Shown: positions 25,810 to 40,636 of the stretch, piece after piece
Numbering within the stretch: the stretch's first letter is position 1
Layout of the letters: every line of letters begins with the position of its first letter
NCBI RefSeq assembly: GCF_000426685.1
Contig: NZ_AUFV01000016.1
Span: 1 to 64,000 of the forward strand
DNA: 64,000 nucleotides
From: Solimonas flava DSM 18980
GTDB lineage: Bacteria > Pseudomonadota > Gammaproteobacteria > Nevskiales > Nevskiaceae
Direction of reading: 5' to 3'
The notes under the pieces: generated by a model
The model's database searches: none
Told to the model about the DNA's origin: nothing
What the model saw: only the letters and a program-made list of their open reading frames with translations
Translations under genes and position numbers: made by a program

Positions 25810-26610
25810 ATGAACGACACACCGCCCGCGGCTTTCGATCCGCCTTCCGCGGATCTCAACACGCGCGCCCACACGCTCGGCCCCTCGCGCGGCGTGTTCG
25901 CGCGCCTCGGCATCGGCGCGCAGACGCGGCTCGAAAACTTCGTCGCCCGCGTCTCGCGGCTGCCGGATGCGCCGGTCTACGACCAGCGTGACTTCGCGTG
26001 GACGCGGACGCTGGAGGCGCACTGGCCGGCGATCCGCGCCGAGCTCGACCGGGTGCTGCAGTCGCGCGACCAGCTGCCGGCCTTCCATCAGATCCTCGAC
26101 GAGGTGCGCACCATCACCAGCGACGACCGCTGGAAAACCTACTGGCTGCTCGCCGCCGGCGTCGACTGTCGCGAAAACCAGGCGCGCTGCCCGCAGACGA
26201 CGGCGCTGCTGCGGCAGATTCCCGGCGTGCTGACGGCGTTCTTCTCGATCCTCGCGCCGGGCAAGAAGATTCCGCCGCACCGCGGTGCCTACAACGGCAT
26301 CCTGCGCTGCCACCTGGGCCTGATCGTGCCGGAGCCGGCCGAACGGGTCGCGATCCGCGTCGGCAACCGCATCTGCCACTGGCGCGAGGGCGAGGCGCTG
26401 ATCTTCGACGACAGCTTCAACCACGAAGTCTGGAACGACACCGACGGCTGGCGCGTGGTGCTGTTCATCGACTTCGCGCGGCCGCTGCGCCAGCCCTGGC
26501 ACGCGCTGAACCGCCTGTTCCTCGGCATCGCCCGCTTCCTGCCGCTGCTGCGCCGCGCCAACCGCCGTCACCGCGACTGGAAGCGCGCGTTCTACGCGCC
26601 GCGCCCGTAA
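25810..26610 (+). CDS. Aspartyl/asparaginyl beta-hydroxylase family protein (LpxO-like)
   Basis: 266 residues. The 2-oxoglutarate/Fe(II) core is intact: H-x-G in IPPHRGAYNGILRCHLGL, with the distal histidine in FDDSFNHEVWND and the 2OG-binding arginine in WRVVLFIDFARPL. YDQRDFAWTRTLEAHWPAIRAELD resembles lipid A hydroxylase LpxO and human AspH-type enzymes. A C-terminal hydrophobic/basic tail (LFLGIARFLPLLRRANRRHRDWKR) suits membrane contact. It follows an envelope-lipid operon and carries the stress-type direct-repeat motif, so hydroxylation of lipid A acyl chains is the best guess; the precise substrate is inferred. Confidence 0.85.
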   Translation: MNDTPPAAFDPPSADLNTRAHTLGPSRGVFARLGIGAQTRLENFVARVSRLPDAPVYDQRDFAWTRTLEAHWPAIRAELDRVLQSRDQLPAFHQILDEVRTITSDDRWKTYWLLAAGVDCRENQARCPQTTALLRQIPGVLTAFFSILAPGKKIPPHRGAYNGILRCHLGLIVPEPAERVAIRVGNRICHWREGEALIFDDSFNHEVWNDTDGWRVVLFIDFARPLRQPWHALNRLFLGIARFLPLLRRANRRHRDWKRAFYAPRP

Positions 26611-26625
26611 GCAGACCGTCCCGCC

Positions 26626-27825
26626 TCAGCGGGCCGCAGCCGCCGCGCCGGACGCGCGCGGCGCGTCGTCGTCGGCGGCCGCGCCCAGTTCGTGCACGAC
26701 CGGCCGCAGCGTCAGCGCGATCAGCCGGTAGAAGTACGACCAGTCGAAGTGCTTGGCGTGCGACTGCTGGCCGTTCGCGGCGAGCCAGGCCGGAATCTCC
26801 TCGGGCCGGTCGTAGAGCGCCAGCGGAATGCCGGCCGCGGCGCTCTTCTGCGCGGCCAGATCGACGACCACGCGGACGATGAACCACGGCACGCCATGCT
26901 CCTCGCTGGCCAGCACCGCGGCGAAATCCTCCTGATCGACGACGAAGCGCGGCGGCGGCGGCAGGTCGAGGCGCTGCGCGGCCAGTGCCATGCGCCGCTC
27001 GATCGTGCTGCGCGCGTGATGGCTGGTGATGAACTGCGAGCCGCTCGCCGACCAGCCGTCGAGCCACAGCGCGGGCCGGTACGGCGCGACACCGTGGAAG
27101 GCGGCGACCTCGTCGCCGATCGGCGGCAATTCGAGTCCGGCGACGCTGCGGCCGATGCGCGCCAGCAGCGCCGGATCAGGCTGCAGCACCAGCCGCGCGA
27201 CGCGGCCGGCGTCGGACAGCAGCGGCTGGCCGCGCATCTGCCAGCTCAGGCCGGCGAAGGTCTGCCCGCCGTCGAGCGCAAAGTCATACCAGTTGCCCTG
27301 ATCGTGCTGCACGGCCGCAGCCGCGACGATCACGTCGCCGACGCGGGTCGCGCCGCCGCCGCCGGCAATGCCGACGAAGCCGAGCGCGCGCACGTTGAAG
27401 TGCTGCAGCAGCACGGTGGCGCCGATCGCGGCGTTGTCCATGTTGCCGCCGGCGACGCCGGCGACGATGTTGGCGCCGGCCCAGCGGCCGACATGGAACT
27501 CGCGGCCGACGATGCGATACACGGCGTCGATCTGCGCGTCCTCGACGATCGCCGAAATCTCCTGATAGGCCGAAGCCAGCAGCGCGATGCTCGGCGCGTC
27601 CGGCAGGCGCGCCGCATCGGGCAGGCGCACCCAGCCGCGCGCCGCGTCGAGGCCGGGATTGGCCGCGCGCAGCGCGGCGACGCTGACGCCGTGGCGCAGC
27701 GCGATGCGCGCCCAGCTGTCGCCGTCGGCGGCGCGGTACGCGATCGGCACGCCGGCCCAGGCCGGCAGCGCCGCCGAAAGCCCGAGCAGCAGCGCCAGCA
27801 GCAGACCGCCGGCCGCCCGCCGCAT
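26626..27825 (-). CDS. Exported LysM-nucleoside phosphorylase-like protein
   Basis: 399 residues. A Sec signal (1-24, ending PAWA) is followed by a LysM-like repeat (about 28-68: YRAADGDSWARIALRHGVS, ALRAANPGL). The rest matches the PNP/MTA-nucleosidase superfamily: VAGVAGGNMDNAAIGATVLL, VGIAGGG, VGDVIV-x6-QHD. A late QEDFA-x17-VDLA region supplies the usual Glu and Asp; the canonical SD serine is replaced by valine. It would cleave or bind a nucleoside in the periplasm, an unusual place for this fold. Last gene of the amidase operon, 23 bp after amidase 1. Confidence 0.72.
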   Translation of the reverse strand: MRRAAGGLLLALLLGLSAALPAWAGVPIAYRAADGDSWARIALRHGVSVAALRAANPGLDAARGWVRLPDAARLPDAPSIALLASAYQEISAIVEDAQIDAVYRIVGREFHVGRWAGANIVAGVAGGNMDNAAIGATVLLQHFNVRALGFVGIAGGGGATRVGDVIVAAAAVQHDQGNWYDFALDGGQTFAGLSWQMRGQPLLSDAGRVARLVLQPDPALLARIGRSVAGLELPPIGDEVAAFHGVAPYRPALWLDGWSASGSQFITSHHARSTIERRMALAAQRLDLPPPPRFVVDQEDFAAVLASEEHGVPWFIVRVVVDLAAQKSAAAGIPLALYDRPEEIPAWLAANGQQSHAKHFDWSYFYRLIALTLRPVVHELGAAADDDAPRASGAAAAAR

Positions 27826-27848
27826 CACGGTTCCCGGCCGGAGCGTGC

Positions 27849-29399
27849 TCACAGCGGCGGCCGCGTCCAGCCGCCGCTGCGGCCTTCGATGTAGCGCGCG
27901 ACGGCCAGCGCCACGTCCTCGCGCCACGGCGGCGCGACGACCTGGATGCCGATCGGCAGCCGGCCGTCGGCCGAGGCGCCGCAGCGCACGACGACGACCG
28001 GCCAGCCGGTCGAGTTGAAGACGCCGACGTCGCTGAGCATGCCGCGGTAGTCGCCGGGCACCGACGGGTCCCAGTCGATCGGCGTCGCCGGCTCGCCGGC
28101 GACCGGACACAGCAGCACGTCGTACTGCGCGAACCAGCCGAGCAGGCGCGACTTCGCCGCGTCCGACTGCTCCCAGGCTTCGACGAATTCCGAGGAGCGC
28201 AGCGGCTTGATCGCGCGGATCGACTCGTCCATCGTGCCGGACAGATGGTGCGTGCCCCACTTCTGCGCGAGCCGCTGGTACCAGGCCCAGCCGTCGCCCA
28301 TCGACAGCTTGCCGCGCATCTCGTGCAGCACGGCGAGATCGGCGGTCGGGCAGTCCTGGCGCACGTCGGCCGCCACCTCGCCCAGCCAGGCGGCCGCCTG
28401 GCGGATCAGCCGCTGCGTGTCGGCGTCGACCTTCGACAGCCCGTTCTCCGGCCAGAACACGACCTTGAGCGCGGCCAGATCGACGCCGTCCGGATCGGCC
28501 CAGGCGATCGGCACGCAGGCCGCGTCGCGGAAATCCGGGCCGCTGATCAGCGGCGCGATCAGCGCGAGATCCTTGACGCGCCGCGCCAGCGGGCCGATCT
28601 GCTGCCAGGAGTCGAGCACGCCGCCGTAATCGACGATGTGGCCGGTGCGCGGCACGCGCCCGGCCGTCGTCTTGAGACCGGCGACGCCGTTGACGTGCGC
28701 CGGCAGGCGCAGCGAGCCGCCGATGTCGGAGCCGACGTCGAAGGCCGCGCCGCCGGCGGCGACGTTGGCGCCGGCGCCGCCCGAGGAGCCGGACGCGGTG
28801 CGCGTCAGGTCATAGGGATTGTGCGTCGAGCCGTACAGCATGTTGCTCGTGGTGTTGATCGCGCCGACGCCGCCGACCGTGAACTCCGGCGTGTTGGTCT
28901 TGCCGAGCAGGATCGCGCCCTGCGCGCGTAGGCGGCGGACCACGGTCGCGTCGCGCGGCGGCACGTACTGCTGGCGGCCGTAGGTGCCGCCGGTCGAGAT
29001 CACGCCCTCGGTATCGAACGAATCCTTGATCGTCATCGGCACGCCGTGCAGCGCGCCGGCGAAGTCGCCGCGCGCGGCGCGCTGGTCGAGCGCGAGCGCT
29101 TCGGCGCGGGCGCGCTCGTAGCAGCTCATGACCACGGCGTTGAGGCGGTCGTCGATCGCGAGCTGGCGCGCGATGTAGGCGTCGACCACTTCCAGCGCCG
29201 ACAGCTGGCGCGCGCGCAACAGGCCGGCGAGCTTGCTCGCCGACATGTAGAGGATCTCGTCGGAATCGACGTCGGCGGCGACGCGGGCGACGGCCTTGGC
29301 GCTGACCCGGCTGCTCGCCGCCAGCGCCGCGGCGCTGGCGGCGCCGCGCAGGAAGACGCGTCGCGAAACGCGGGCGGCCGAAGAGGAAATCGCGGGCAT
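27849..29399 (-). CDS. Exported amidase-signature hydrolase 1 (Tat signal)
   Basis: 516 residues. The N-terminus SRRVFLRG followed by an alanine-rich stretch (residues 12-34) is a twin-arginine signal. Catalytic triad of the amidase-signature family: K125 (MTIKDSFD), cis-Ser S205 (GSSGG) and nucleophile S228 (GSDIGGSLR). It hydrolyses an amide bond in the periplasm; the substrate is unknown. Closely related in sequence to amidases 2 and 3 (HGVPMTIKDSFDTEG, GRVPRTGHI, a C-terminal GVFNSTGWPVVVV). Fifth amidase gene in transcription order, 14 bp after amidase 2. Confidence 0.9.
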   Translation of the reverse strand: MPAISSSAARVSRRVFLRGAASAAALAASSRVSAKAVARVAADVDSDEILYMSASKLAGLLRARQLSALEVVDAYIARQLAIDDRLNAVVMSCYERARAEALALDQRAARGDFAGALHGVPMTIKDSFDTEGVISTGGTYGRQQYVPPRDATVVRRLRAQGAILLGKTNTPEFTVGGVGAINTTSNMLYGSTHNPYDLTRTASGSSGGAGANVAAGGAAFDVGSDIGGSLRLPAHVNGVAGLKTTAGRVPRTGHIVDYGGVLDSWQQIGPLARRVKDLALIAPLISGPDFRDAACVPIAWADPDGVDLAALKVVFWPENGLSKVDADTQRLIRQAAAWLGEVAADVRQDCPTADLAVLHEMRGKLSMGDGWAWYQRLAQKWGTHHLSGTMDESIRAIKPLRSSEFVEAWEQSDAAKSRLLGWFAQYDVLLCPVAGEPATPIDWDPSVPGDYRGMLSDVGVFNSTGWPVVVVRCGASADGRLPIGIQVVAPPWREDVALAVARYIEGRSGGWTRPPL

Positions 29400-29413
29400 G
29401 GGCAAGGTCCGGT

Positions 29414-30961
29414 TCAGATCGGGGGACGGCGGTAACCGCCGGTGTAGGCTTCGATGTGGCGCAGCGCCGCGATCAGCTGGTCCTCGCGCCAGGGCCGCGC
29501 GATCAGCTGCACGCCGACCGGCAGCGCCGGCTCGCCGGCGGCGCTGCCGGCGCGCACGACACCGGCCGGCCAGCCGTTGGTGTTGTAGATGCCGAGGTAG
29601 TACGGGCTCATCCGCCGCCGCGGCACGGGCGCGGCCGCCGGCGCCGGCTTCGCCGGCGGCGGCAGCGGCAGCGGCGCCGGCCGCTCGCCGATCGGCAGCG
29701 CCGCGCGCGTGCTGGCCGGGCACAGGATCAGGTCGTACTGCTCGAACCACGCCAGCTGCTCGCTGCGCACCGCGTCGAGTTCCTCGGCGTAGCGCGTGAA
29801 ATCGGCGCACGGCAGCTCGTCGCCGCTGGCCGGCGGCAGGCTCGGATACGGCGTCGCGGTGCCGGCGCGCTGCAGCAGGCTGCGCGTCAGATAGCCGCCG
29901 GCGGCGCCGCTGTAGGCGCCGCGCAGGCCGGCCAGCTCGCCCATCTTCGGCGGCATGTCCTCACGCACGCGGCAGCCGGCCTCGGCCAGCGACTGCGCGC
30001 AGCGCCGCACCAGTTCCTGGATCTCGGCGCTCGGCGGGTTCTCGCCGTTCGTCGCATAGACGGCGACGCGCAGGCCGCGCAGGTCGACGGCGTCGGCATC
30101 GCCGAGCGGCACCGGCTGCACCGCCGCGTCGCGCTGGTCGGGGCCGGCGATGATCGGCAGCAGCAGCGCCAGATCCTCGACGCGGCGCACCAGCGGACCG
30201 ATGCCCTGGAAGGCGTCGTAGGCGCCGCCGTAGCCGATGATGTGACCCGTGCGCGGCACGCGGCCGTGCGTCGGCTTGAGACCGACGACGCCGCAGGCAT
30301 GCGCCGGATCGCGGATCGAGCCGTAGAAGTCCGAGCCGAGATCGAAGCTCGCGCCGCCGGCAGCGACGTTGGCCGCCGAGCCGCCCGACGACGCGCCCGG
30401 CTGGTAGTCGGGATGGTAGGGATTGCGAGTGACGCCGTAGACCAGGTTGTCGGTGCCGCGCGGACCGACGCCGAGCGTGAACTCCGGCGTGTTGGTCTTG
30501 CCGAGCAGGATCGCGCCGGCGGCGCGCACGCGGGCGACGACGGTGGCGTCCTGGCCGGGGATGAAATGCGCGCGGCCGAGCGTGCCGCCGGTCGACACCA
30601 GGCCTTCCGTGTCGAACGAATCCTTGATCGTCATCGGCACGCCGTGCAGCGGCCCGAGCGGCTTGCCCCTGGCCTGCGCGGCGTCGGCCTCGCGCGCTTC
30701 GTACAGCGCGCGCTCGAAGCATCGCGCGACGACCGCGTTGAGGCGCGGATGGAGCGCCTCGATGCGGGCGATGTGCAGGCGCACCGCCTCGCTCGCCGAC
30801 AGCTGGCCGGCGCGGATCAGGCCGGCGAGCTTGGTCGCCGACATGAACAGCGGATCGTCGCTGCTGTCGCTCGACACGCGGTAGCGCGGCGCGGCGGCCG
30901 GCAGCGGCGCGGCGCCGAGCAAGGCACGGCGGCTCAGCGCAGGCTTGGACGTGGCACTCAA
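29414..30961 (-). CDS. Exported amidase-signature hydrolase 2 (TTG start)
   Basis: 515 residues if translation begins at a TTG that overlaps the stop codon of amidase 3 (TTGA). GGAG lies 8 bp upstream and no ATG occurs before the signal, so TTG is the likely start. An SRRALLG motif suggests a Tat signal, though the hydrophobic stretch is short. Triad: K113, S191, S215. The nucleophile loop reads GSDFYGS, with Tyr213 where the family has glycine in the oxyanion hole; activity could be altered. A proline/alanine insertion (about residues 420-445) is peculiar to this copy. Confidence 0.87.
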   Translation of the reverse strand: MSATSKPALSRRALLGAAPLPAAAPRYRVSSDSSDDPLFMSATKLAGLIRAGQLSASEAVRLHIARIEALHPRLNAVVARCFERALYEAREADAAQARGKPLGPLHGVPMTIKDSFDTEGLVSTGGTLGRAHFIPGQDATVVARVRAAGAILLGKTNTPEFTLGVGPRGTDNLVYGVTRNPYHPDYQPGASSGGSAANVAAGGASFDLGSDFYGSIRDPAHACGVVGLKPTHGRVPRTGHIIGYGGAYDAFQGIGPLVRRVEDLALLLPIIAGPDQRDAAVQPVPLGDADAVDLRGLRVAVYATNGENPPSAEIQELVRRCAQSLAEAGCRVREDMPPKMGELAGLRGAYSGAAGGYLTRSLLQRAGTATPYPSLPPASGDELPCADFTRYAEELDAVRSEQLAWFEQYDLILCPASTRAALPIGERPAPLPLPPPAKPAPAAAPVPRRRMSPYYLGIYNTNGWPAGVVRAGSAAGEPALPVGVQLIARPWREDQLIAALRHIEAYTGGYRRPPI

Positions 30962-32490
30962 AGCGGAGGTCTCCGGTAGCCGCCGGCGCGGCGTTCGATA
31001 TGGGCCATCGCGGCGAGCACGAGCTCGTCGCGCCAGGGCTGGCCGACGACCTGGATGCCGAGCGGCAGGCCCGGATCGAGGCTCGACGTGCCGGTGCGCA
31101 CGACGCCGGCCGGCCAGCCGTTGTTGTTGAACACGCCGAGATAGGAAATGCCGGCGACGCGCGGCCCCGGCGGTGGCGGCGGCAGGCGTTCGAGGTCGAT
31201 CGGCAGCGCCGCGCGCGTGCCGGCCGGACAGAGGATCAGGTCGTAGCGCTCGATCCACGCGAGTTGCTCGCTGCGGATCGCATCGAGTGCTTCGGCGGCG
31301 CGCGTCAGCTCGGCGACCGGCGCTTCCTCGCCGCCGAGGTAGAGGCCCGGCGAAGCCTGGGTCGTGCCGCTGGCCGCCAGCAGGCGCCGCATCGGGTCGC
31401 TGCCGGGCGCACCGGCGTAGGCGAAACGCGCCGCCGACAGCGCCGCCATCTTCGGCGGCAGGTCCTCGACCACGCGGCAGCCGAGTTCGCGGAACCAGGC
31501 CGCGGCCTGCCGCACCAGCGCCTGGTTCTCCGGCGTCGGCGCGTTGAGGCCGTTGCTCGCGAACCAGGCGACGCGCAGGCGCGACAGCTCGACCGCGGCC
31601 GGATCGCCGAGCGGCACCGGCTCGATCGCCGCGTCCTGATGGTCGGGGCCGGCGATGATCGGCAGCAGCAGCGCCAGATCCTCGACGCGGCGCGCGATCG
31701 GGCCGATGCCCTGGAAACTGTCGTACGGCCCGCCGTAGCCGATGATGTGGCCGCTGCGCGGCACGCGACCGTGCGTCGGCTTGAGCGCGGCGAGCCCGCA
31801 GGCGTTGGCCGGTCCGCGCAGCGAGCCGCCGAAATCGGAGCCGATGTCGAAGCTCGCGCCGCCGGCGGCGACGATCGCCGCCGCGCCGCCCGACGAGGCG
31901 CCCGGCTGGTAGTCGGTGTCGTAGGGATTGCGCGTCAGGCCGTAGACCAGATTGTCGGTGCCCTTCCAGCCGCCGCCGAGCGTGAACTCCGGCGTGTTCG
32001 ACTTGCCGAGCAGGATCGCGCCGGCGGCGCGCGCGCGGGCGACGACGGTGGCGTCGCGCTTCGGCACGAAACCGCGCCGACCCAGCGTGCCGGCGGTCGA
32101 GATCACGCCCTCGGTGTCGAACGAATCCTTGATCGTCATCGGCACGCCGTGCAGCGGGCCGCAGCGCGCGCCGCGCGCCAGCGCCGCATCGGCGGCCGCC
32201 GCTTCCTGCAGCGCGCGTTCGAAGCAGGTCGCGCCGAGCGCGTTGAGGCGCGGATTGACCGCTTCGAGCCGCGCGATGTGCAGACGCACGACCTCGCGCG
32301 CCGACAGCTGCCGGGCGCGGATCAGCGCGGCCAGCCGCGTCGCCGACATGAACAGCGGATCGTCGTCGCCGGGCGCCGCCGCGGCCGGCACCGCGGCCCG
32401 TGTCGCACCCGGCGCGGCGATGCCGGCGACGGCACCGCCGAGCAGCTGGCGGCGGCTCAGCCGCGACGGCGGCACAGGCGGGGTCGTCAT
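30958..32490 (-). CDS. Exported amidase-signature hydrolase 3 (Tat signal)
   Basis: 510 residues. Twin-arginine signal SRRQLLGG with a good hydrophobic stretch (residues 12-35). Triad: K121, S199, S223 in GSDFGGSLR. Highly similar to amidase 2 along its whole length (LPIIAGPD, LAWIERYDLILCPAGTRAALPI, YLGVFNNNGWPAGVV), pointing to recent tandem duplication. Its ATG overlaps the stop of amidase 4 (ATGA), so the two are translationally coupled. Confidence 0.9.
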   Translation of the reverse strand: MTTPPVPPSRLSRRQLLGGAVAGIAAPGATRAAVPAAAAPGDDDPLFMSATRLAALIRARQLSAREVVRLHIARLEAVNPRLNALGATCFERALQEAAAADAALARGARCGPLHGVPMTIKDSFDTEGVISTAGTLGRRGFVPKRDATVVARARAAGAILLGKSNTPEFTLGGGWKGTDNLVYGLTRNPYDTDYQPGASSGGAAAIVAAGGASFDIGSDFGGSLRGPANACGLAALKPTHGRVPRSGHIIGYGGPYDSFQGIGPIARRVEDLALLLPIIAGPDHQDAAIEPVPLGDPAAVELSRLRVAWFASNGLNAPTPENQALVRQAAAWFRELGCRVVEDLPPKMAALSAARFAYAGAPGSDPMRRLLAASGTTQASPGLYLGGEEAPVAELTRAAEALDAIRSEQLAWIERYDLILCPAGTRAALPIDLERLPPPPPGPRVAGISYLGVFNNNGWPAGVVRTGTSSLDPGLPLGIQVVGQPWRDELVLAAMAHIERRAGGYRRPPL

Positions 32491-34064
32491 GGCGTCTCCG
32501 CGTAGTCGAAGCTCTCGCCGGGCAGCGCCGGCGTCAGCGGCGGTGCCCGGCGGCGCTGCGTGCGCGCCTCGTAGCCGCTGGCCAGCCGGATCAGCGTCGG
32601 CTCGGCGAACGGCCGGCCGATCAGCTCGATCGAGAACGGCATGCCGTCCGGCTCGAAATAGCCGCCGGGCACCAGCACCGCCGGCAGGCCGGTATACGCA
32701 TGCAGGCCGTTGCGCATCTCGCGCCGCGCCGTGCCGCCGAGGCTTTCGTCGACACCCGGCGCCGTCACCGTGCGGTACGGCAGTACCAGCGCGTCGAGGC
32801 GGTGGCGCTCCATCAGCGCGAGCAGCGCGTCGCGCAGGCGCGCCTGCTCGCGCAGCGCGGCGAGAAACGGCGGATAGCGGTCGAGCGAGCGGATCGCGGC
32901 GACCTCGCGCAGGTACGGATCGACGGCGTCGCCGCCCTTGCGCAGCATCTCGTCGAGCGAGCGCATCGGCGCACCCGGCGGCAGGCTGCGCAGATAGGCG
33001 TCGGCGGCGATGCCCTGCTCGTAGGTCGCGCTGCTGGCCGCGCCCTGCGCCTGCGGCAGATCGATGCCGCTCAGCACCGGATCGACGAGCACCGCGCCGG
33101 CCGCGGCCATGGCCTTGAGCTCGCGCTCGAACAGCGCGCGCCCGGCGGCGTGCGCCGGACCGCCGCGCACCATCTCGCGCAGCACGCCGATGCGCGCGCC
33201 GCGCAGGCCCTGCGCATCGACGTACGACGCGTACGGCCGCTCGGGCAGGCGGCCGAGACCGGCCAGCGTGCTGAGGTCATCGGGATCGAAGCCGGCGATC
33301 GCGTCGAGCACGGCGGCCGCGTCGTAGACGCTGCGCGTCATCGGCCCGGCCCGCTCCTGCACCGGCGAGTTCCACATCATGCCGCGGCGGCTGACCAGGC
33401 CGCGCGTCGGCGCGATCGCGACCACGGCATTGAGCGCCGCCGGAATCAGCAGCGAGCCGCCGGTGTCGCTGCCGAGCGCGACGCTGCCGAACCAGGCGGC
33501 GGCGGCGACGCCGGAACCGGAACTCGACGCGCCCGGATAGCGCGCGAGGTTGTACGGGCTGCGCACCGGCCCGCCGAGCGAGCTGCCGCTGCCCGACGCG
33601 CTGCCGTACCAGTCGGCGAGATTGAGCTTGGCCAGCACGATCGCGCCGGCCGCGCGCAGGCGCTCGACGACGAAAGCGTCGCGCGCCGGCTGCGAAGTCG
33701 CCATCGGCGCGAAGCCGCCGGTGGTCGGCAGATCGTGCGTGTCGAAGACGTCCTTGACCACCACGACGACGCCGTGCAGCGGCCCGCGCGGGCCCTGCCG
33801 CCGACGCTCGGCGTCGAGCGCGCGCGCCTCGTCGAGCGCGCGCGGATTGAGCGTGAGCACGGCGCCGAGCCGCGGTCCGTCGCGGTCGTAGGCGGCGATG
33901 CGCGCCTGGTACAGCTCGACCAGACGCTCCGAGCTCAGCGCGCCGGACGCGAACGCGGCGTCGAGATCGGCGACGGTCGCCGTCGACAGCTCGAAGTGCG
34001 CGGCCTCGGCCGGCGCGAACGTACCGGCCAGCAGCGCGGCGCAAAGGAATCGTGGCAGGCGCAT
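32487..34064 (-). CDS. Exported amidase-signature hydrolase 4 (peptide-amidase-like, Sec signal)
   Basis: 525 residues with a Sec signal (1-22, ending AEAA). Triad: K104 (VVVKDVFD), S180 in an ASSSGSG loop, and S204 in GSDTGGSLL. The surroundings of the lysine (RGPLHGVVVVVKD, LPTTGG) place it with amidase 5 and with the exported peptide amidase of Stenotrophomonas, which removes C-terminal amides from peptides. That relation is from memory of the family, not a search. Begins 5 bp after amidase 5. Confidence 0.9.
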   Translation of the reverse strand: MRLPRFLCAALLAGTFAPAEAAHFELSTATVADLDAAFASGALSSERLVELYQARIAAYDRDGPRLGAVLTLNPRALDEARALDAERRRQGPRGPLHGVVVVVKDVFDTHDLPTTGGFAPMATSQPARDAFVVERLRAAGAIVLAKLNLADWYGSASGSGSSLGGPVRSPYNLARYPGASSSGSGVAAAAWFGSVALGSDTGGSLLIPAALNAVVAIAPTRGLVSRRGMMWNSPVQERAGPMTRSVYDAAAVLDAIAGFDPDDLSTLAGLGRLPERPYASYVDAQGLRGARIGVLREMVRGGPAHAAGRALFERELKAMAAAGAVLVDPVLSGIDLPQAQGAASSATYEQGIAADAYLRSLPPGAPMRSLDEMLRKGGDAVDPYLREVAAIRSLDRYPPFLAALREQARLRDALLALMERHRLDALVLPYRTVTAPGVDESLGGTARREMRNGLHAYTGLPAVLVPGGYFEPDGMPFSIELIGRPFAEPTLIRLASGYEARTQRRRAPPLTPALPGESFDYAETP

Positions 34065-34069
34065 CGGAG

Positions 34070-35764
34070 TCAGTAGCGGAAGCGCTCGCCGGGCAGCGGC
34101 GGCGTGTGCGTCGGCAGCGGCAGCGGCGGCCCGCCGCGCTCGTAGGCGTCGGCCACGCCGATCAGCAGCGGCTCGCTGAAGGCCGGACCGACGAAGGAGA
34201 TCGAGATCGGCAGGCCGTCGCGGCTGAGGCCGGCCGGCGCGACCAGATCGGGAAAGCCGGTGATGTTGCCGATGTTGGTCAGGCCCACGCCGATCGACTT
34301 CACGCCCGGCGGCGGCGGCGGCACGCCGCGTCCGGTCAGCGGCTCGTCGGCGATGATGCGGTGCGGCGGCCGCGGCCGCGTCGGGTAGACGAGCACGTCG
34401 ACGCGCTGCTGCTCGAAGACGCCGAGCACACCGTCGGCGACCATGGCGATGCCGTGCTCGCGCGCCGAACGGTAGGCGAGCGAATTCATGCCCTGCCCGC
34501 TCGTCACGCGCTTGGCGAGTCCTGCGTAGACGACCGGATACGGCGACCACGCGCCCTGCGGCGCGCGCAGCGCCAGGCCGCGTTCGGCCAGCTCGGCCAG
34601 CGTCTTCGGATAGCCCGGCGCGAGGCGGCCGAGGTAGGCGTCGAAATAGACCGCCTTCTCGGTGTCGCAGACGACCTTGACGATCGCACGGCGCGTCGCC
34701 GGATCGACGACCTGCGGCGGATAGGCGACGTCGACCAGCTCGGCGCCGAGCTTGCGCAGACGCTCGAGCGCTTGCGCGAACGCGGCGTCGACGTCGGCAT
34801 CGGCGCCGCTGCCTTCGCGCAGCACGCCGATGCGCAGGCCGTCGAGCCTCTGGCGGCCGAGGAAGACACGGTAGTCGCGATGCGTCTTGCCGAGGCTGTC
34901 GGCGGTATCGGCGTCGCCGGGCTCGTAGCCGGTCATCGGCCCGAGCATCGCCGCCAGATCGCTGGCGTGGCGCGCCATCGGTCCGGCGGCGTCGTAGCTG
35001 TAGCAGGTCGGAATGATGCCGTCGCGCGACAGCAGGCCGCGCGTCGGCTTCAGGCCGTAGACGCCGCCGACCGAGGCCGGGCTGCGCAGCGAGCCGCCGG
35101 TGTCGGTGCCGAGCGCCAGCGGCGCCAGCCAGGCGGCGAGCGCCGCGCCGGAACCGCCGGACGAGCCGAGCGGCGTGAAGTCCGGATCGTAGGGATTGCG
35201 CGTCTGGCCGTGGATCGAGCTGAAGCCGGCGCCGCCGGCGGCGAAGTCGTCGAGATTGACCTTGGCGAGAATGATCGCGCCGGCCTCGCGCAGGCGGCGG
35301 ATGATCGGCGCGTCGGCTTGCGGCTGCGCGCCGGCGAGCACGAACGAGCCGCCGGTGGTCGGCATCTCGGCGGTGTCGATGTTGTCCTTGACCACGACCG
35401 GAATGCCGTGCAGCGGCCCGCGCGGGCCCTTCTGCCGGCGCTCGCGATCGAGCGCGCGCGCCTCGTCGAGCGCGTGCGGATTGAGCGCAATCACCGCGTT
35501 GATGCGCGGCCCGGCCTGATCGTAGGCCTGAATGCGCTGCAGATAGAGCGAGACCAGCTGCTCGGCGCTGAGCGTGCCGGCCGCGTAGGCGGCGCCGATG
35601 TCGGCGACGCTGGCGCGCGACAGTTCGACGCTGGCGGCGCCGGCGGCGGGCGCGGCGCCGAGCAGCGCCGCGCCGAGCCACAGCGCGGCGCCGGCCGCTG
35701 CCCGCCGCGAGCGGCGCGGCGCGCTGATCGCGCGCGCCGCCGCGCCCGCGTTCAGAAGCGCCAT
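34070..35764 (-). CDS. Exported amidase-signature hydrolase 5 (peptide-amidase-like)
   Basis: 564 residues. A long N-terminus with RRSRR followed by a hydrophobic stretch (about 22-43) is a Tat- or Sec-type signal. Triad: K126 (PVVVKDNID), S201 (GSSGGSG), S225 (GTDTGGSLR). It is the closest of the five to peptide amidase (RGPLHGIPVVVKDNIDTAEMPTTGGS). First amidase gene after the receptor; its start codon lies 13 bp inside the 3' end of the TonB receptor gene, so expression is tied to the receptor. Confidence 0.9.
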   Translation of the reverse strand: MALLNAGAAARAISAPRRSRRAAAGAALWLGAALLGAAPAAGAASVELSRASVADIGAAYAAGTLSAEQLVSLYLQRIQAYDQAGPRINAVIALNPHALDEARALDRERRQKGPRGPLHGIPVVVKDNIDTAEMPTTGGSFVLAGAQPQADAPIIRRLREAGAIILAKVNLDDFAAGGAGFSSIHGQTRNPYDPDFTPLGSSGGSGAALAAWLAPLALGTDTGGSLRSPASVGGVYGLKPTRGLLSRDGIIPTCYSYDAAGPMARHASDLAAMLGPMTGYEPGDADTADSLGKTHRDYRVFLGRQRLDGLRIGVLREGSGADADVDAAFAQALERLRKLGAELVDVAYPPQVVDPATRRAIVKVVCDTEKAVYFDAYLGRLAPGYPKTLAELAERGLALRAPQGAWSPYPVVYAGLAKRVTSGQGMNSLAYRSAREHGIAMVADGVLGVFEQQRVDVLVYPTRPRPPHRIIADEPLTGRGVPPPPPGVKSIGVGLTNIGNITGFPDLVAPAGLSRDGLPISISFVGPAFSEPLLIGVADAYERGGPPLPLPTHTPPLPGERFRY

Positions 35765-37875
35765 TCGGCGCCGCCGTAGACGCCGCGCGGCAGCGCGCGA
35801 TAGCCGTAGACCTGGTCGTAGCTGCGGTCGAAGAGGTTCTCGACGCGCAGCTTCAGCGTCAGCTGATCCCAGAGCTTGTAGCTGGTGTAGATACGGGCGA
35901 CGAGATAGTCGTCGGCGCGGCCGGTGCTCTCGATGCTGTCGTAGGCCGCGTTGGCGCCCATGCCGACGGTCCACACCGGCAGGAGGTCGAGCGAGGTCGA
36001 GGCGTCGATCGAGTGTCGCGGACGGCGCGTCAGGCGCGCGTCGGTGGTGCTGTCGGTGGCGTCGAGGTAGGTGTAGCCGAGGCGCAGGTTCCAGATCGAG
36101 GCCGGCCGCAGCGTCACGCCCAGTTCGGCGCCCTGCGTCTCGGCCTTGGCGCGGTTGACGTACATGCCCGCGTAGGTCGTCAGATCGGTGTACTCCCAGT
36201 CGATCAGATCGCGGAAGCGATTCTGGAAGTAGGTCGCGCTGAGCGTCGCCAGGCCGTCGAACAGCGACTGGTCGACGCCGACGTCCCAGCCCTTCGACTT
36301 CTCGGGCTGGATGTCCGGATTCGGCAACTGGTTCCAGGCCGGCACGCCGTAGCGGTCCGACGAGCCCGGCGCGGCGAAGCCGGTGCCGTAGGTCGCGCGC
36401 AGCTTGGTCTTCGGCAGCACCATCCAGGCTAGGCCGGTGCGCCACGTCGTCGCGCCGCCGACGGTGTCGTAGTCGTCGCGGCGGATGCCGGCGTTGAGCG
36501 TCAGCGTGTCGGTGATCTGGTAGGTGCCGGACAGGAAGCCGGCGACGATCGTGTCGTCGCTGCTCGTCGCGTTGATGTCGTACTTGGACGATTCGTAGTT
36601 CGCGCCGGCGACCAGTTCGAGTCCGTCGAGCGCCTTCCACGCCGTCTGCCAGTCGACGACGGTGCGGCGGTTGGCGAGATCGCTCTTGCCCCAGGAATCG
36701 GTCCAGGTGTAGTCGCGCCGGTGCAGCGCCGCCGAGACGTGCGAGGTCACGCTGTCGCTGGCGCGCCACTCGGCGTAGACGGTGCCGAGATAGTTCGCCG
36801 AATCGACGACGCCGGGCGCGAAGTAGTAGCGCGAGCCGTTCGAGTGATACTCGCCGGACTGGCCGCGAAAGGTCGCGCCGATGTCCCAGTCCGGATCGAG
36901 CGCGTACGACAGGCGCGCCGAATAGTTCTGGCTGTCGTAATCGTTGTTCGGATCGTGATTGTCGGTCTGGTAGTGGTTGAACGAGGCGCTGTAGCCGAGA
37001 TCGCCACTGCTGCCGGTGGTCGCCAGCGAGGCCGAGAAGGTATCGAACGAGCCGCCGGTGACCGACACGCCGCCGGCCGGCTTGGCCGAACCCTCGGCGG
37101 TGTTCATCAGGATCACGCCGCCGATCGCGGCGCTGCCGTACATCGTGCTTTGCGGGCCGCGCAGGATTTCGACGCGGTCGAAGCCGGAGAGGTCGGCGCC
37201 GCCGAGAAAGTTGTCGTAGGTCGCGGCGCGGTCGTTCATGCGCACGCCGTCGACGATGAACAGCGTGTGGTGCGGATACGCGCCGCGGATGTAGACCGCC
37301 GACTGGCCACCGACGGCGCCGGTGTTCATGACCGAGACGCCGGGCTGCTCGGCGAGCGCGCTCTTCAGATCGTCGACCTGCGCCTTCTTCATGTCGGCCA
37401 GCGAGACCACGCTGACACTGCTCGAAGTGTGGCGCGCCGACTGCGGCGTGCGCGACGCCGACACCACGATCGTGTCGATGCCATCGTCGAGCGCCGCGCC
37501 CTTGTCGGCCGCCGGCTCGACCGTCTTCGCCGGCGCCGCCGGAATGATGCCGACCGTCTTGTCGCCGACGGCGTGGAACGCGAGCGGGCTGCCGTCCAGC
37601 ATCGCCGCCAGCGCCTGGCTCAGCGGCATGCGGCCCTGCACCGGCTTGCTGGTCTGTCCGTTGACCAGATCCGAGGGCATCAGGATCTGCACGCCGCTCT
37701 GCTTGGACAGCGCGATCAGCGCGCTGGTCAGCGACTGCGCCGGCACGTTGACCTCGACCGGCTTGGCCAGCACGCCTTCCTGCGCCCCGGCCACGCCCAC
37801 GCCCGCCACACTCAACGCCAGCACGATACCGGCCGACGAACTCATGCTCGCCGCGCCCCGCCAGAACCTACGCAT
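35752..37875 (-). CDS. TonB-dependent receptor with STN signalling domain (FecA-type, BtuB-like barrel)
   Basis: 707 residues: signal peptide (about 1-31, ending AGAQ), STN domain (about 45-112, PAQSLTSALIALSKQSGVQILM), TonB box (near 134, DTIVVSAS), plug (about 145-260, with VYIRGAYPHHTLFIVDGVRM and RVEILRGPQSTMYGS) and a 22-strand-type barrel ending in AEWRF. The STN domain is what contacts a FecR protein, so it is both importer and sensor. The barrel resembles BtuB/CirA more than siderophore receptors. The ligand is unknown; five amidases encoded downstream imply an amide compound. Preceded by its own leader after the fecR terminator. Confidence 0.93.
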   Translation of the reverse strand: MRRFWRGAASMSSSAGIVLALSVAGVGVAGAQEGVLAKPVEVNVPAQSLTSALIALSKQSGVQILMPSDLVNGQTSKPVQGRMPLSQALAAMLDGSPLAFHAVGDKTVGIIPAAPAKTVEPAADKGAALDDGIDTIVVSASRTPQSARHTSSSVSVVSLADMKKAQVDDLKSALAEQPGVSVMNTGAVGGQSAVYIRGAYPHHTLFIVDGVRMNDRAATYDNFLGGADLSGFDRVEILRGPQSTMYGSAAIGGVILMNTAEGSAKPAGGVSVTGGSFDTFSASLATTGSSGDLGYSASFNHYQTDNHDPNNDYDSQNYSARLSYALDPDWDIGATFRGQSGEYHSNGSRYYFAPGVVDSANYLGTVYAEWRASDSVTSHVSAALHRRDYTWTDSWGKSDLANRRTVVDWQTAWKALDGLELVAGANYESSKYDINATSSDDTIVAGFLSGTYQITDTLTLNAGIRRDDYDTVGGATTWRTGLAWMVLPKTKLRATYGTGFAAPGSSDRYGVPAWNQLPNPDIQPEKSKGWDVGVDQSLFDGLATLSATYFQNRFRDLIDWEYTDLTTYAGMYVNRAKAETQGAELGVTLRPASIWNLRLGYTYLDATDSTTDARLTRRPRHSIDASTSLDLLPVWTVGMGANAAYDSIESTGRADDYLVARIYTSYKLWDQLTLKLRVENLFDRSYDQVYGYRALPRGVYGGAEWRF

Positions 37876-37939
37876 ATGCCCCCCGAAAATGGATGGATGC
37901 CGAATTGGTTTTCCGGTAGCTATGACGTACGAGTCCGGC

Positions 37940-37968
37940 GCGGCGGCGCTCGCCGCCGCATTTTTTTT
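37940..37968 (+). terminator. Terminator-like hairpin on the plus strand in the receptor leader
   Basis: Perfect 9-bp stem GCGGCGGCG / CGCCGCCGC (37940-37959) followed by A and T8 (37961-37968). It is oriented to stop plus-strand transcription, opposite to every gene around. On the receptor's own strand it is an A-run followed by the hairpin about 65 bp before the start codon. It might end an antisense RNA or shape the leader. Confidence 0.5.
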
Positions 37969-38000
37969 ACGCTCCGGAGCGCGATCGCTGTGGCGGACAC

Positions 38001-38028
38001 AAAAAAAGGCGCCGCGAGCGGCGCCTTT
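38001..38028 (-). terminator. Rho-independent terminator after fecR
   Basis: Stem GGCGCCGC / GCGGCGCC (38008-38025) extended by three A-T pairs. A 7-nt T-run (38001-38007 read on the minus strand) follows, 18 bp past the fecR stop. It separates the sigma/anti-sigma pair from the receptor-amidase operon, which must then have its own promoter. Confidence 0.8.
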
Positions 38029-38045
38029 GGCAGACAAGCCTTTGT

Positions 38046-39152
38046 TCAGTCGCCGTGCGCGGCGCCGGCGCGCGCCTGGATCACGATGCCACTGCCCTGC
38101 TGCAGCACCTCGACCGGGAACTCGCTCGGCAGCGCGCGCAGCCATTCGTCGGTCGCGGACGTCAGCAGCGTGCCCGAGAAGCGCAGCTTGCCGACGTCGC
38201 CGTGGATGAAGACCGGACGTCGCGTGTAGCGATTGAGATCGGCGATGACGGCGCCGAGCGGCTCGTTGTTGTATTCGAGACGGCCCTCGCGCCAGCCGAG
38301 CACCGCCTGCGGGTCGACGGCACCGACCGTCGGATCCTTCTGACCCTCGTCCCAGCTGACCTGGCCGCCGGCCGAGACGACGACGGCGTCGCTTTCCGCC
38401 GGGGCAGCGGCCAGCGCCCCGGTGCGGTACACCTTGACGACGCCTTCGGTGACGGTGACGACGACCCGGTCCGCTGCGTGCCGCACGTTGAACGCCGTGC
38501 CGACCGCGCGAATGCGGACGTCGCCGGCGGCGACGATGAACGGCCGCCGCGGATTGTGCGCGACCGAGAAGAATCCCTCGCCACTGTCCAGGCTCAGATT
38601 GCGCTGCGCCTCGTCGTAGTGCACGGTCACCAGCGAGTTGGCCGCCAGCTCGACGCGCGAGCCGTCCGACAACGTCGCCGCGTGCACGGTTTCCGTGCTG
38701 GGCGCGACCACGGCATCGTCGTCGAGCAGCGACGGCTCCGACTGGTCGCGCAGCGTCCAGCCCAGGCCAAGTGCCAGCACGCAGGCGCAAGCCGCGCCGA
38801 GCACCGCGACGCGGCGGCGGCGCACGCTCAGCGGCTCGAAGAAATCGAGGGTCGTGGCGACCAGCGTGCCACGCGCGCGGCGCAGCGCGCCGGTGCGGCG
38901 CCGCGGTGCCGCCGGCCGGGCGGCGAGCAGCTCGCCATCGACGACCTCGTCGGCCAGACCGCCGCTCAGCGTCCACAGCTCGCGCACACGCTCGTAGGCC
39001 TGCTGGTTGCGCTCGTCGGCTTCGTACCACTGCACCCAGCTGACGATCTCGGCCTCGCTCGCCGATGCGTCGCGCAGGCGCTCCATCCACTCCGCCGCCG
39101 CCTCGAGGCGCTGCGCGTCGATCTGACTGTGCCGGCGGCCGTCAGGCTTCAT
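38046..39152 (-). CDS. fecR: FecR-family anti-sigma/sigma-regulator
   Basis: 368 residues. N-terminal cytoplasmic domain (DUF4880-like, AAAEWMERLRDASASEAEIVSWVQW), one membrane helix (about 112-132, VAVLGAACACVLALGLGWTL) and the periplasmic FecR domain (about 150-250, TVHAATLSDGSRVELAANSLVTVHY, AVGTAFNVR, VTVTEGVVKVY). A C-terminal STN-like part begins with LGAVIADLNRYTRRPVFI. It relays ligand binding by the receptor's STN domain to the sigma factor. Its ATG overlaps the sigma gene's stop codon (ATGA). Confidence 0.93.
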   Translation of the reverse strand: MKPDGRRHSQIDAQRLEAAAEWMERLRDASASEAEIVSWVQWYEADERNQQAYERVRELWTLSGGLADEVVDGELLAARPAAPRRRTGALRRARGTLVATTLDFFEPLSVRRRRVAVLGAACACVLALGLGWTLRDQSEPSLLDDDAVVAPSTETVHAATLSDGSRVELAANSLVTVHYDEAQRNLSLDSGEGFFSVAHNPRRPFIVAAGDVRIRAVGTAFNVRHAADRVVVTVTEGVVKVYRTGALAAAPAESDAVVVSAGGQVSWDEGQKDPTVGAVDPQAVLGWREGRLEYNNEPLGAVIADLNRYTRRPVFIHGDVGKLRFSGTLLTSATDEWLRALPSEFPVEVLQQGSGIVIQARAGAAHGD

Positions 39153-39745
39153 TGAAATATCCGTTCCTTTGCTTCTGCGCTCGTCAGGCCATCCAGCCGC
39201 AGGCGGCAGTAGGCTACGACACGGCGCAGGTATTTTCTGGTCTGGCTGTCACGCAAGCCCAGCTCCTCGCCGATTTCCTCGACGCTCTTCTCCTCGATCC
39301 GCGACAGCAGGAACGCCCGGCGATAACGCTCGGGCAGCTCCAGCAGCGCCTGCCGTACGATAGCCAGATCCTCGCGCGCCGCATACAGCCGGTCGGGGCT
39401 GAGCGTATCGGTCAGCTCGTCGAGATCGTAGACCTTCTCGATCTGCTCGCCGCGAATCCGGTGCCGCAGGCGATCCTGGGCGATGTTCACCGCGGTGCGG
39501 AACAGGTATGCGCGCAGATAGCTGACCGCGCCCGGTTCGTGCAGCTGCAGCATGCGCACGTACGCTTCCTGTGCGACCTCGCGGGCCTCGGCCTCGGTGC
39601 CGAGCCGGTGCTGCAGCATCGACACCAGCGTGCGGTTGTGGCGCTCGAACAGCTCCGCCAGTTCCGATGCGCGCGGCGGCGCGTCCGCGCGCCGCTCGTC
39701 TCCCGAGGACGGCTCCTCGAGGAGGAAAACACCGTTGATAGCCAT
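39149..39745 (-). CDS. ECF sigma factor, FecI type
   Basis: 198 residues from the ATG giving MAINGVFLL; the frame stays open 55 codons upstream. Region 2 (about 30-100) has LAELFERHNRTLVSML and AQEAYVRMLQL. Region 4 (about 130-185) has LELPERYRRAFLLSRIEEKSVEEIGEELGLRDSQTRKYLRR, a helix-turn-helix for the -35 element. Directly upstream of and overlapping fecR, it should drive the receptor-amidase operon. The acidic N-terminal extension (DERRADAPP) is longer than in E. coli FecI. Confidence 0.9.
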   Translation of the reverse strand: MAINGVFLLEEPSSGDERRADAPPRASELAELFERHNRTLVSMLQHRLGTEAEAREVAQEAYVRMLQLHEPGAVSYLRAYLFRTAVNIAQDRLRHRIRGEQIEKVYDLDELTDTLSPDRLYAAREDLAIVRQALLELPERYRRAFLLSRIEEKSVEEIGEELGLRDSQTRKYLRRVVAYCRLRLDGLTSAEAKERIFQ

Positions 39746-39994
39746 GGACTCCAGCACTGAGGATGAGGCCCCGATCTGGATAAGACGTCCGAGCGCCGGC
39801 TTGCGGCGCTCGCCAACGCAAATCAGTGGAGCGATTGCACTGGCGAATCCATAGTCAAGAATCGTGCCTTGCGCTGTGCGCATGGGCTTGCAGCGCGAGC
39901 GCGCGATCATCCGGCGCCGGCCGCGGCGAACCGCACGGCGGCGCGCGCGAAGGCTCTATTTAGGCGATAAGGAAGCGCCGCGCGCCGCGCCGGC
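39746..39994 (-). promoter_or_regulatory. Leader and promoter region of the sigma factor gene
   Basis: 249 bp between pqiC and the sigma gene. A TTGACT (39853-39858 on the minus strand) is a plausible -35, though no good -10 stands 16-18 bp on. A GAGCGCC / GGCGCTC hairpin (39791-39811) lies in the leader. No gene or Fur-box-like AT-rich palindrome was seen. Confidence 0.3.
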
Positions 39995-40636
39995 TCAGCC
40001 CGGACAGCGCACCGCGGCGCGGTCGCGCTGCGCGGTCTCGACCACGCCGGCGATATCGGCGGCGAGCCGGGCCAGGCCGGTCTGGGCACCGTCGACCAGC
40101 GCGTCGTAGCCGGCGCCGACCGGCGCCGTGACCCGCGTCGAGCAGGTCCAGCGCGCCTTCAGCGCGCCCGGCGCGCTGACGTCGAGCACGGTCCACACCG
40201 CGTCGAGGCGCACGCTGGCGGCGAGCTGCGCATCGAGGCGCTGGACGTCGACGAGCACGCGATAGACCGGCACGCCCGGCGGCGGCGCAACCTGCGAGAC
40301 GTCCTGCGCACCGAGCGCGGCCCCGAGTTCGGCGACCAGCGCACCGCGCACCTCGTCGGGCAGCGGCGCGATCCAGCGCCGCGTCTCGACCAGCGCCACT
40401 TCGCCGTTGCCCTGGCGCACGACCAGCTCCGGCTGGTTGACCTGCGCCGGCACCCGCACCGGCTGCACGTCGAGCGCGAACGCCGCCTGGCCGGCGGCGA
40501 GCGGCGCGACCGGCGTCGGCCGCACCAGCGTGTAGAAGCGCGTCGGCGCCTCGCCGCTGCAGGCGGCGACGCCGAACGCGGCGAGCGCGAGCGCGCCGAG
40601 TCCCCACCGATACCGCTGCCGTGCGCTGCGCATCAC
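39995..40636 (-). CDS. pqiC: PqiC/YmbA-type ABC transport auxiliary lipoprotein
   Basis: 213 residues with a lipobox GVAAC (C26). The mature part starts TRFYTLVRP and continues LDVQPVRVPAQVNQPELVVR, the pattern of the PqiC (DUF330) lipoprotein. With PqiB it is thought to form the outer-membrane end of a lipid-transport tunnel. Its start overlaps the pqiB stop (ATGA), completing a pqiA-pqiA-pqiB-pqiC operon. Confidence 0.87.
   Translation of the reverse strand: MMRSARQRYRWGLGALALAAFGVAACSGEAPTRFYTLVRPTPVAPLAAGQAAFALDVQPVRVPAQVNQPELVVRQGNGEVALVETRRWIAPLPDEVRGALVAELGAALGAQDVSQVAPPPGVPVYRVLVDVQRLDAQLAASVRLDAVWTVLDVSAPGALKARWTCSTRVTAPVGAGYDALVDGAQTGLARLAADIAGVVETAQRDRAAVRCPG

What the first reader, a model, noticed from the sequence alone, without database searches (positions are those of the whole stretch)
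26626..39745. Self-inducing TonB uptake locus with five tandem exported amidases and a periplasmic nucleosidase
Seen: sigma (FecI type)-fecR-terminator-TonB/STN receptor, then five amidase-signature genes and a LysM-nucleoside phosphorylase-like gene. The genes are joined by a 13-bp overlap, a 5-bp gap, an ATGA overlap, a TTGA overlap, a 14-bp gap and a 23-bp gap. All six enzymes have Tat- or Sec-type signals. Established: STN receptors with FecIR switch on their own operon when ligand binds, and amidase-signature enzymes use a Lys-Ser-Ser triad, intact in all five. Inference: the cell senses, imports and dismantles an amide-rich compound in the periplasm. Adding an N-glycosidase-fold protein makes a peptidyl-nucleoside (antibiotic) or an amidated peptide a testable ligand. 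I know of no described locus with this gene set.
Basis: partly seen in the sequence, partly recalled or inferred. Interest (0 to 1): 0.82.

Follow-up and report, generated by a model that had tools for sequence, protein, structure and literature searches.

The report
TonB-linked cassette of exported amidases
A bacterium carries a self-contained 13-kb gene cassette that pairs an outer-membrane uptake receptor and its signalling switch with five amide-cutting enzymes that look exported, and it is the small sibling of a much larger locus, with seventeen such enzymes, in the same genome and in related bacteria.

Summary
In detail: minus-strand genes for an ECF sigma factor, FecR, an STN-type TonB receptor, five amidase-signature (AS) enzymes with intact triads and signal-like N-termini, and a LysM-nucleosidase-like protein, with the stated spacings.

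New: (1) The block is an island. In three other genomes of the genus its neighbours (Asp-hydroxylase, pqiC) lie side by side, 7 bp apart in G003 (probably Solimonas soli). One close relative has it too; its nucleosidase occurs in 2 of 85 order genomes searched. (2) The same genome has a ~49-kb locus with FecI, FecR, two TonB receptors, 17 AS genes, two asparaginases, a formamidase-like gene, an unknown membrane protein (U18) and an RND pump. Whole or partial relatives occur in Solimonas, Hydrocarboniphaga, and Nevskia and Steroidobacter metagenome records. Among 58 family genomes, the 13 with U18 have 12 to 23 (a cap) AS matches; the other 45 have 1 to 10.

So TonB receptors with exported-looking amidases recur, with distantly related receptors. 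Self-induction, ligand and chemistry remain inference. The peptidyl-nucleoside idea is weak: the nucleosidase was found in two genomes only. Nine searches of the held literature showed no description in the rows listed.

The parts
26608..39985 (.). island: the whole cassette, absent from the corresponding place in three other genomes of the genus
   Evidence: aligned flanks 7 bp apart in G003; 165 and 178 unaligned bases in G008 and G001; no shared 12-mer between the two ends
39149..39757 (-). ECF sigma factor of FecI type (ATG alternative at 39745)
   Evidence: Pfam Sigma70_r2, Sigma70_r4_2 above cut-off; NCBIfam TIGR02937 above cut-off, FecI-specific models below theirs
38046..39152 (-). FecR-type anti-sigma regulator
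   Evidence: Pfam FecR and DUF4880 above cut-off
38005..38028 (-). intrinsic-terminator-like hairpin between fecR and the receptor gene
   Evidence: 5 terminator-like sites in the scanned region, 3.0 expected; this one has 10 pairs and a T run; stem conserved in G007 with one T fewer
35752..37875 (-). TonB-dependent receptor with STN signalling domain (707 aa)
   Evidence: STN, Plug, barrel; best NCBIfam model TIGR01779 (BtuB) 241.4 bits, cut-off 599.7, not met; start read
34070..35764 (-). AS amidase 1, Sec-like signal, closest solved relative peptide amidase
32487..34064 (-). AS amidase 2, Sec-like signal, closest solved relative peptide amidase
30958..32490 (-). AS amidase 3, Tat-like signal
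29414..30961 (-). AS amidase 4, weak Tat-like signal, TTG start
27849..29399 (-). AS amidase 5, Tat-like signal, closest solved relative urethanase UMG-SP3
26626..27825 (-). LysM + MTA/SAH-nucleosidase-like protein with Sec-like signal
   Evidence: Pfam LysM, PNP_UDP_1; PDB MTA/SAH nucleosidases; in 2 of 85 order genomes

Best explanation
The island is an acquired, surface-signalling catabolic (or detoxifying) cassette. A TonB receptor with an STN domain brings an amide-rich compound into the periplasm and signals through FecR to its ECF sigma factor, which switches on the receptor-amidase operon. Five exported AS amidases of two subfamilies (peptide-amidase-like with Sec-like signals: 1 and 2; urethanase-like with Tat-like signals: 5, with 3 and 4 in the same part of the tree) then cut its amide-type bonds, and the nucleosidase-like protein may cut a glycosidic bond. 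It is a smaller sibling of a large locus that combines the same plan with seventeen amidases, asparaginases and a formamidase-like protein. Shown here: gene content, order, intact catalytic residues, island structure, and recurrence of receptors with AS arrays. Inferred: export, self-induction, import of the substrate, and the nature of the substrate.
For: Gene content, spacing and triads. The island is one unit with an empty site in three genomes. The same genome holds a second FecI-FecR-receptor-amidase locus whose receptors match the island's at only 26-27% over parts and which has 17 further AS genes, all with signal-like N-termini by eye on my own gene starts, whereas the C2 and C16 AS genes outside the clusters have none. 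Relatives in G003, G010, G012, G018 and named loci. Ton-type gene set beside the receptors in G010 (Pfam) and in L040 (tblastn), and by order and first residues in G012 and G018. U18 tracks AS matches: at least 11 in 13 of 13 U18-positive and 0 of 45 U18-negative family genomes. Closest solved relatives. Precedent for receptor + sigma/anti-sigma + amide-bond hydrolase: lasso-peptide isopeptidase clusters (PMC9266682, passages); Fec signalling (PMC8144685, passages).
Against: No expression or activity data. The receptor's best family model is BtuB, though far below its cut-off, and the large-locus receptors score best, weakly, against siderophore-receptor models. No inner-membrane importer for products is in the island. 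The island is known from two genomes only. One U18 locus (L039) has a receptor but no amidase in the held DNA, and four distant U18 loci have none of the sought genes. Solved-structure scores for amidase 5 are close together for urethanases, GatA, ClbL and biuret hydrolase, so they hardly fix its chemistry. Structure prediction could not be obtained.
Confidence: 0.55

Rival explanations
1. Nitrogen scavenging: the enzymes mainly strip ammonia from primary amides (peptide C-terminal amides, Asn/Gln side chains, simple amides) in the periplasm, and the receptors bring in mixed peptides rather than one compound.
For: Closest solved relatives of amidases 1 and 2 are peptide amidases; the large locus adds two asparaginase-family proteins, one of them a type II asparaginase by NCBIfam, and a formamidase/acetamidase-family protein.
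Against: Amidase 5 is closest to urethanases, with biuret hydrolase and NylA also near; more than twenty enzymes seem excessive for this; nitrogen-regulated promoters were not looked for.
Confidence: 0.2
2. Detoxification or envelope editing: the amidases destroy an amide antibiotic or toxic peptide that enters the periplasm, or act on the cell's own envelope.
For: RND efflux genes lie at the large locus in own C17 (Pfam) and, by blastp, in G003, G010, G012 and G018; LysM on the island's last protein may bind peptidoglycan.
Against: The number of enzymes and the TonB receptors fit use better than defence (inference). No defence or resistance library was searched.
Confidence: 0.14
3. Coincidental neighbours: an iron- or cobalamin-type FecIRA unit that happens to have landed next to an amidase array.
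For: BtuB-like and siderophore-receptor-like scores.
Against: 13-bp overlap of receptor and first amidase; whole block present or absent as a unit; second association with distantly related receptors in the same genome and in several genera; no Rfam family at gathering score in the window, so no known cobalamin riboswitch, and nothing relevant below it before the receptor.
Confidence: 0.11

Closest known systems
FecI/FecR/FecA-type cell-surface signalling (ferric citrate uptake of E. coli)
   Same: ECF sigma, FecR, STN receptor; fecIR followed by a terminator-like hairpin before the receptor operon
   Different: cargo genes are AS amidases instead of an iron ABC importer
Lasso-peptide isopeptidase clusters of proteobacteria (astexin, sphingopyxin)
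   Same: TonB-dependent transporter plus sigma/anti-sigma pair next to a hydrolase of an amide-type bond (PMC9266682, passages)
   Different: the isopeptidase is a beta-propeller/alpha-beta hydrolase with a Ser-His-Glu/Asp triad and sits with lasso biosynthesis genes; here several AS enzymes
Peptide amidase Pam (PDB 1m21, 1m22, 5ac3)
   Same: closest solved relative of amidases 1 and 2
   Different: no NCBIfam cut-off met for amidase 1 among the rows shown; an array of paralogues beside a TonB/sigma unit
UMG-SP urethanases, NylA, biuret hydrolase
   Same: among the closest solved relatives of amidase 5
   Different: the metagenomic urethanases are known as single enzymes (recalled; only the start of the abstract of PMC11708778 was seen, in the listing); here a multi-gene array with export signals
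Polysaccharide- or carbohydrate-utilisation loci with TonB receptors (recalled)
   Same: outer-membrane receptor, regulator and many degrading enzymes in one locus
   Different: amide-bond hydrolases instead of glycosidases

Membership tests
FecIRA-type surface signalling | ECF sigma + FecR + TonB receptor with STN domain, in this order | tested here: met
FecIRA-type surface signalling | ligand-dependent induction of the receptor operon | not testable with these tools
   needs transcription data; a terminator-like hairpin and, in two near-identical genomes, a conserved stretch before the receptor gene were seen
Amidase signature (AS) family | PF01425 above cut-off | tested here: met
   five of five
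Amidase signature (AS) family | Lys, cis-Ser, Ser triad | tested here: met
   86 of 87 aligned AS proteins, including all five of the window; the exception is a 224-aa fragment (G003_17)
Peptide amidase (Pam) | closest solved relative by sequence | tested here: met
   amidases 1 and 2; not amidase 5; amidases 3 and 4 not searched
Peptide amidase (Pam) | removes C-terminal carboxamides of peptides | not testable with these tools
   no assay
BtuB cobalamin receptor | TIGR01779 above cut-off | tested here: not met
   241.4 bits against 599.7; no Rfam match at gathering score
MTA/SAH nucleosidase | NCBIfam equivalog cut-off | tested here: not met
   best model NF004079, 68.8 bits against 169
MTA/SAH nucleosidase | catalytic Glu, Glu, Asp (positions 12, 174, 197 of the E. 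coli enzyme, recalled) | tested here: inconclusive
   identical residues align to 1jys, but the stretch with the last two scores only 3.3 bits
Lasso-peptide isopeptidase cluster | prolyl-oligopeptidase-like isopeptidase in the locus | tested here: not met
   no such family among the island proteins scanned
Large U18/asparaginase/amidase locus (this report) | U18, asparaginase pair, formamidase-like gene | tested here: not met
   none of them in the island; the amidase families and the FecI-FecR-receptor plan are shared

The most novel reading that the evidence does not exclude
A class of TonB-linked 'amide-utilisation loci' exists in Solimonas, Hydrocarboniphaga, Nevskia and their kin, equivalent in plan to polysaccharide-utilisation loci: receptors, sigma/anti-sigma control, sometimes their own ExbB-ExbD-TonB set, and batteries of up to about twenty exported amidase-signature enzymes plus asparaginases that take apart one complex amide material in the periplasm. 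The window island is an acquired, minimal version with its own receptor.
Probability: 0.45. Interest if true: 0.78.

Novelty: new variant of a known kind. Interest (0 to 1): 0.6.

Why it matters
AS amidases with export signals in such numbers beside TonB receptors and sigma/anti-sigma pairs would imply an unrecognised environmental amide substrate and a periplasmic pathway for it. The loci are a source of exported peptide-amidase-like and urethanase-like enzymes, and the island with its empty site makes the ligand question testable by simple expression and growth experiments.

Tried and rejected
Plasmid records hold no relatives of the nucleosidase, the receptor or amidase 1 at E limits 1e-15, 1e-60 and 1e-80. 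Within the family the nucleosidase (E 1e-10) and the receptor (E 1e-80, at most 20 candidates scored per genome) were found in 2 of 58 genomes each; within the order the nucleosidase in 2 of 85; in a phylum sample amidase 3 matched at E 1e-110 in 1 of 398, this genome (at most 3 candidates scored per genome). A recent duplication of the large locus as origin of the island was judged unlikely: amidases 1, 3, 4 and 5 branch outside groups that span several genera, while amidase 2 pairs with a single G012 protein (one alignment, FastTree, one fragment dropped). Terminal repeats: no shared 12-mer. Foreign composition: not clear (G+C 72.5% against 69.9% and 70.8% in the flanks; third-position G+C like the rest). 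U18 neighbours in planctomycete loci gave no clue (by eye, no family search). Gene calling on the distant loci crashed and was replaced by tblastn. Literature: nine searches; two returned nothing; of the others only the listed rows were seen (20 of 32; 15 of 17; 12 of 1002; 1 of 1; 12 of 279; 10 of 94; 1 of 1), and none of those titles or abstract starts describes such a locus.
Full report
OBSERVATION. I place the receptor start at ATG 37875 (sequence, translation) and the terminator-like hairpin at 38028-38005. Five of five AS proteins pass PF01425 and keep Lys, cis-Ser and Ser. Export is judged from N-termini by eye; amidase 4 has the weakest signal.

THE ISLAND. Homologues of the left neighbour (Asp/Asn hydroxylase, window 25894-26610) and of pqiB on the right (40633-42288) were sought in 11 genomes of the genus. 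In two (this genome and G007) the island lies between them. In three (G003, G008, G001) hydroxylase, pqiC and pqiB are neighbours without it: the aligned flanks are 7 bp apart in G003 and leave 165 and 178 unaligned bases in G008 and G001. In G010 the two genes lie on different contigs. The other five have no close homologue of one of the two genes (hydroxylase at most 45% identical or not found, or no pqiB match), so they say nothing. The inserted stretch, about 26608-39985, is just the reported genes. G007 carries all nine at 96-100% identity in the same order. The island's nucleosidase was found in 2 of 85 order genomes and its receptor in 2 of 58 family genomes. I read this as gain of one functional unit, though loss elsewhere is not formally excluded.

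THE LARGER LOCUS. The same genome has 25 AS genes by my count of 29 match rows: five here, 17 on contig C17, and three elsewhere (C8, C16, C2). C17 carries, within about 2.3-51.3 kb, FecI, FecR, two TonB receptors (the first with an STN-like N-terminus by eye), 12 AS genes, the unknown membrane protein U18, two asparaginase-family proteins (one scanned and above the NCBIfam type II cut-off), a formamidase/acetamidase-family protein, five more AS genes, and an RND pump with its fusion protein. All 17 have signal-like N-termini by eye on my own gene starts; the C16 and C2 genes do not; the C8 gene was not read. Related loci were mapped in G003, G010 (two places), G012 and G018. In G010 a gene set with DUF3450, ExbB, ExbD, TonB and TPR matches follows the receptors (six of its seven genes scanned); G012 and G018 have genes of the same order and first residues there, and L040 matches the set by tblastn.

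DISTRIBUTION. U18 found 17 loci in the named genome collection. In 12 of 17 the held DNA also has AS, asparaginase or formamidase-like genes; one (L039) has FecI-like and receptor matches but no such gene; four distant ones (37-40% identity; three planctomycete records and L052) have none of the sought genes. In 58 family genomes 13 have U18; their AS match counts are 12 to 23, a cap, against 1 to 10 in the other 45 (Mann-Whitney P 2e-8, relatedness not corrected). In a class sample U18 was found in 1 of 369 genomes, this one (at most 3 candidates scored per genome).

RELATION OF THE TWO. Island amidases are sister branches to amidase groups of the large loci: amidase 1 to the C17_08 group (support 0.825), amidase 2 to G012_11 (0.999), amidase 5 to the C17_23 group (1.0), and amidases 3 and 4 form a pair (0.999) that is sister to the C17_22 group (0.914). 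Best identities to own C17 proteins are 40-65%. Sigma and FecR are 33% and 31% identical to their C17 counterparts over 82% and 55% of their length; the receptor matches the C17 receptors at 26-27% over parts. So the same amidase families are joined to distantly related receptors, which argues for a functional link of TonB uptake and these amidases.

CHEMISTRY. Amidases 1 and 2 are closest to peptide amidases among solved structures. Amidase 5 is closest to UMG-SP3 urethanase, with an unnamed amidase, GatA, ClbL, biuret hydrolase and other UMG-SP enzymes close behind, then NylA. Family membership does not fix the substrate: for the three amidases scanned against NCBIfam (1, 4 and 5) no cut-off was reached among the 25 rows shown of 26 each. 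The last gene resembles MTA/SAH nucleosidases; the alignment places Glu, Glu, Asp at the recalled catalytic positions, but the second half aligns without significance.

WORKING MODEL. Ligand binding to the STN receptor signals via FecR to the sigma factor (as in the Fec system, PMC8144685, passages); the receptor operon is induced; the compound enters the periplasm and is cut there. The nearest described plan is the lasso-peptide isopeptidase cluster (PMC9266682, passages), where a TonB-dependent transporter and sigma/anti-sigma pair accompany one amide-bond hydrolase. The multiplicity of AS enzymes, the asparaginases and the Ton-type sets seem new; nine literature searches showed no description in the rows listed, but the library lacks most subscription papers.

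VERDICT. New variant of a known kind (surface-signalling TonB locus), interest 0.6.

Noticed in passing
L001:2271 to L003:11273 (contig C17 of the same genome): Large locus with FecI/FecR, two TonB receptors, 17 exported-looking AS amidases, two asparaginase-family genes, a formamidase-like gene and an RND pump.
   Followed up: yes
L002:13562-15289 (U18): Conserved ~550-aa membrane-like protein without a Pfam match above cut-off, with conserved His/Trp/Asp-rich motifs; distant relatives also in planctomycete records without the sought genes.
   Followed up: partly
L001:10050-12074, L001:15557-17506, L002:4542-6848, L002:6980-9235, L002:11052-13340: Long AS proteins (649-768 aa) in which the Pfam amidase match is split or covers only part, suggesting an insertion or extra domain.
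   Followed up: no
L022:1542-7100: Set of DUF3450, two ExbB, ExbD, a second ExbD-like gene (not scanned), TonB and TPR genes following the receptors in the G010 version of the large locus.
   Followed up: partly
L039:715-10747: U18 locus with FecI-like and TonB-receptor matches but no amidase in the held DNA: a possible variant with other enzymes.
   Followed up: no
G012:C5:1015-1028 kb (L029): Genes that by their first residues resemble flavin monooxygenases and a nitrilase lie next to further AS genes; recalled resemblance, not checked with a family search.
   Followed up: no
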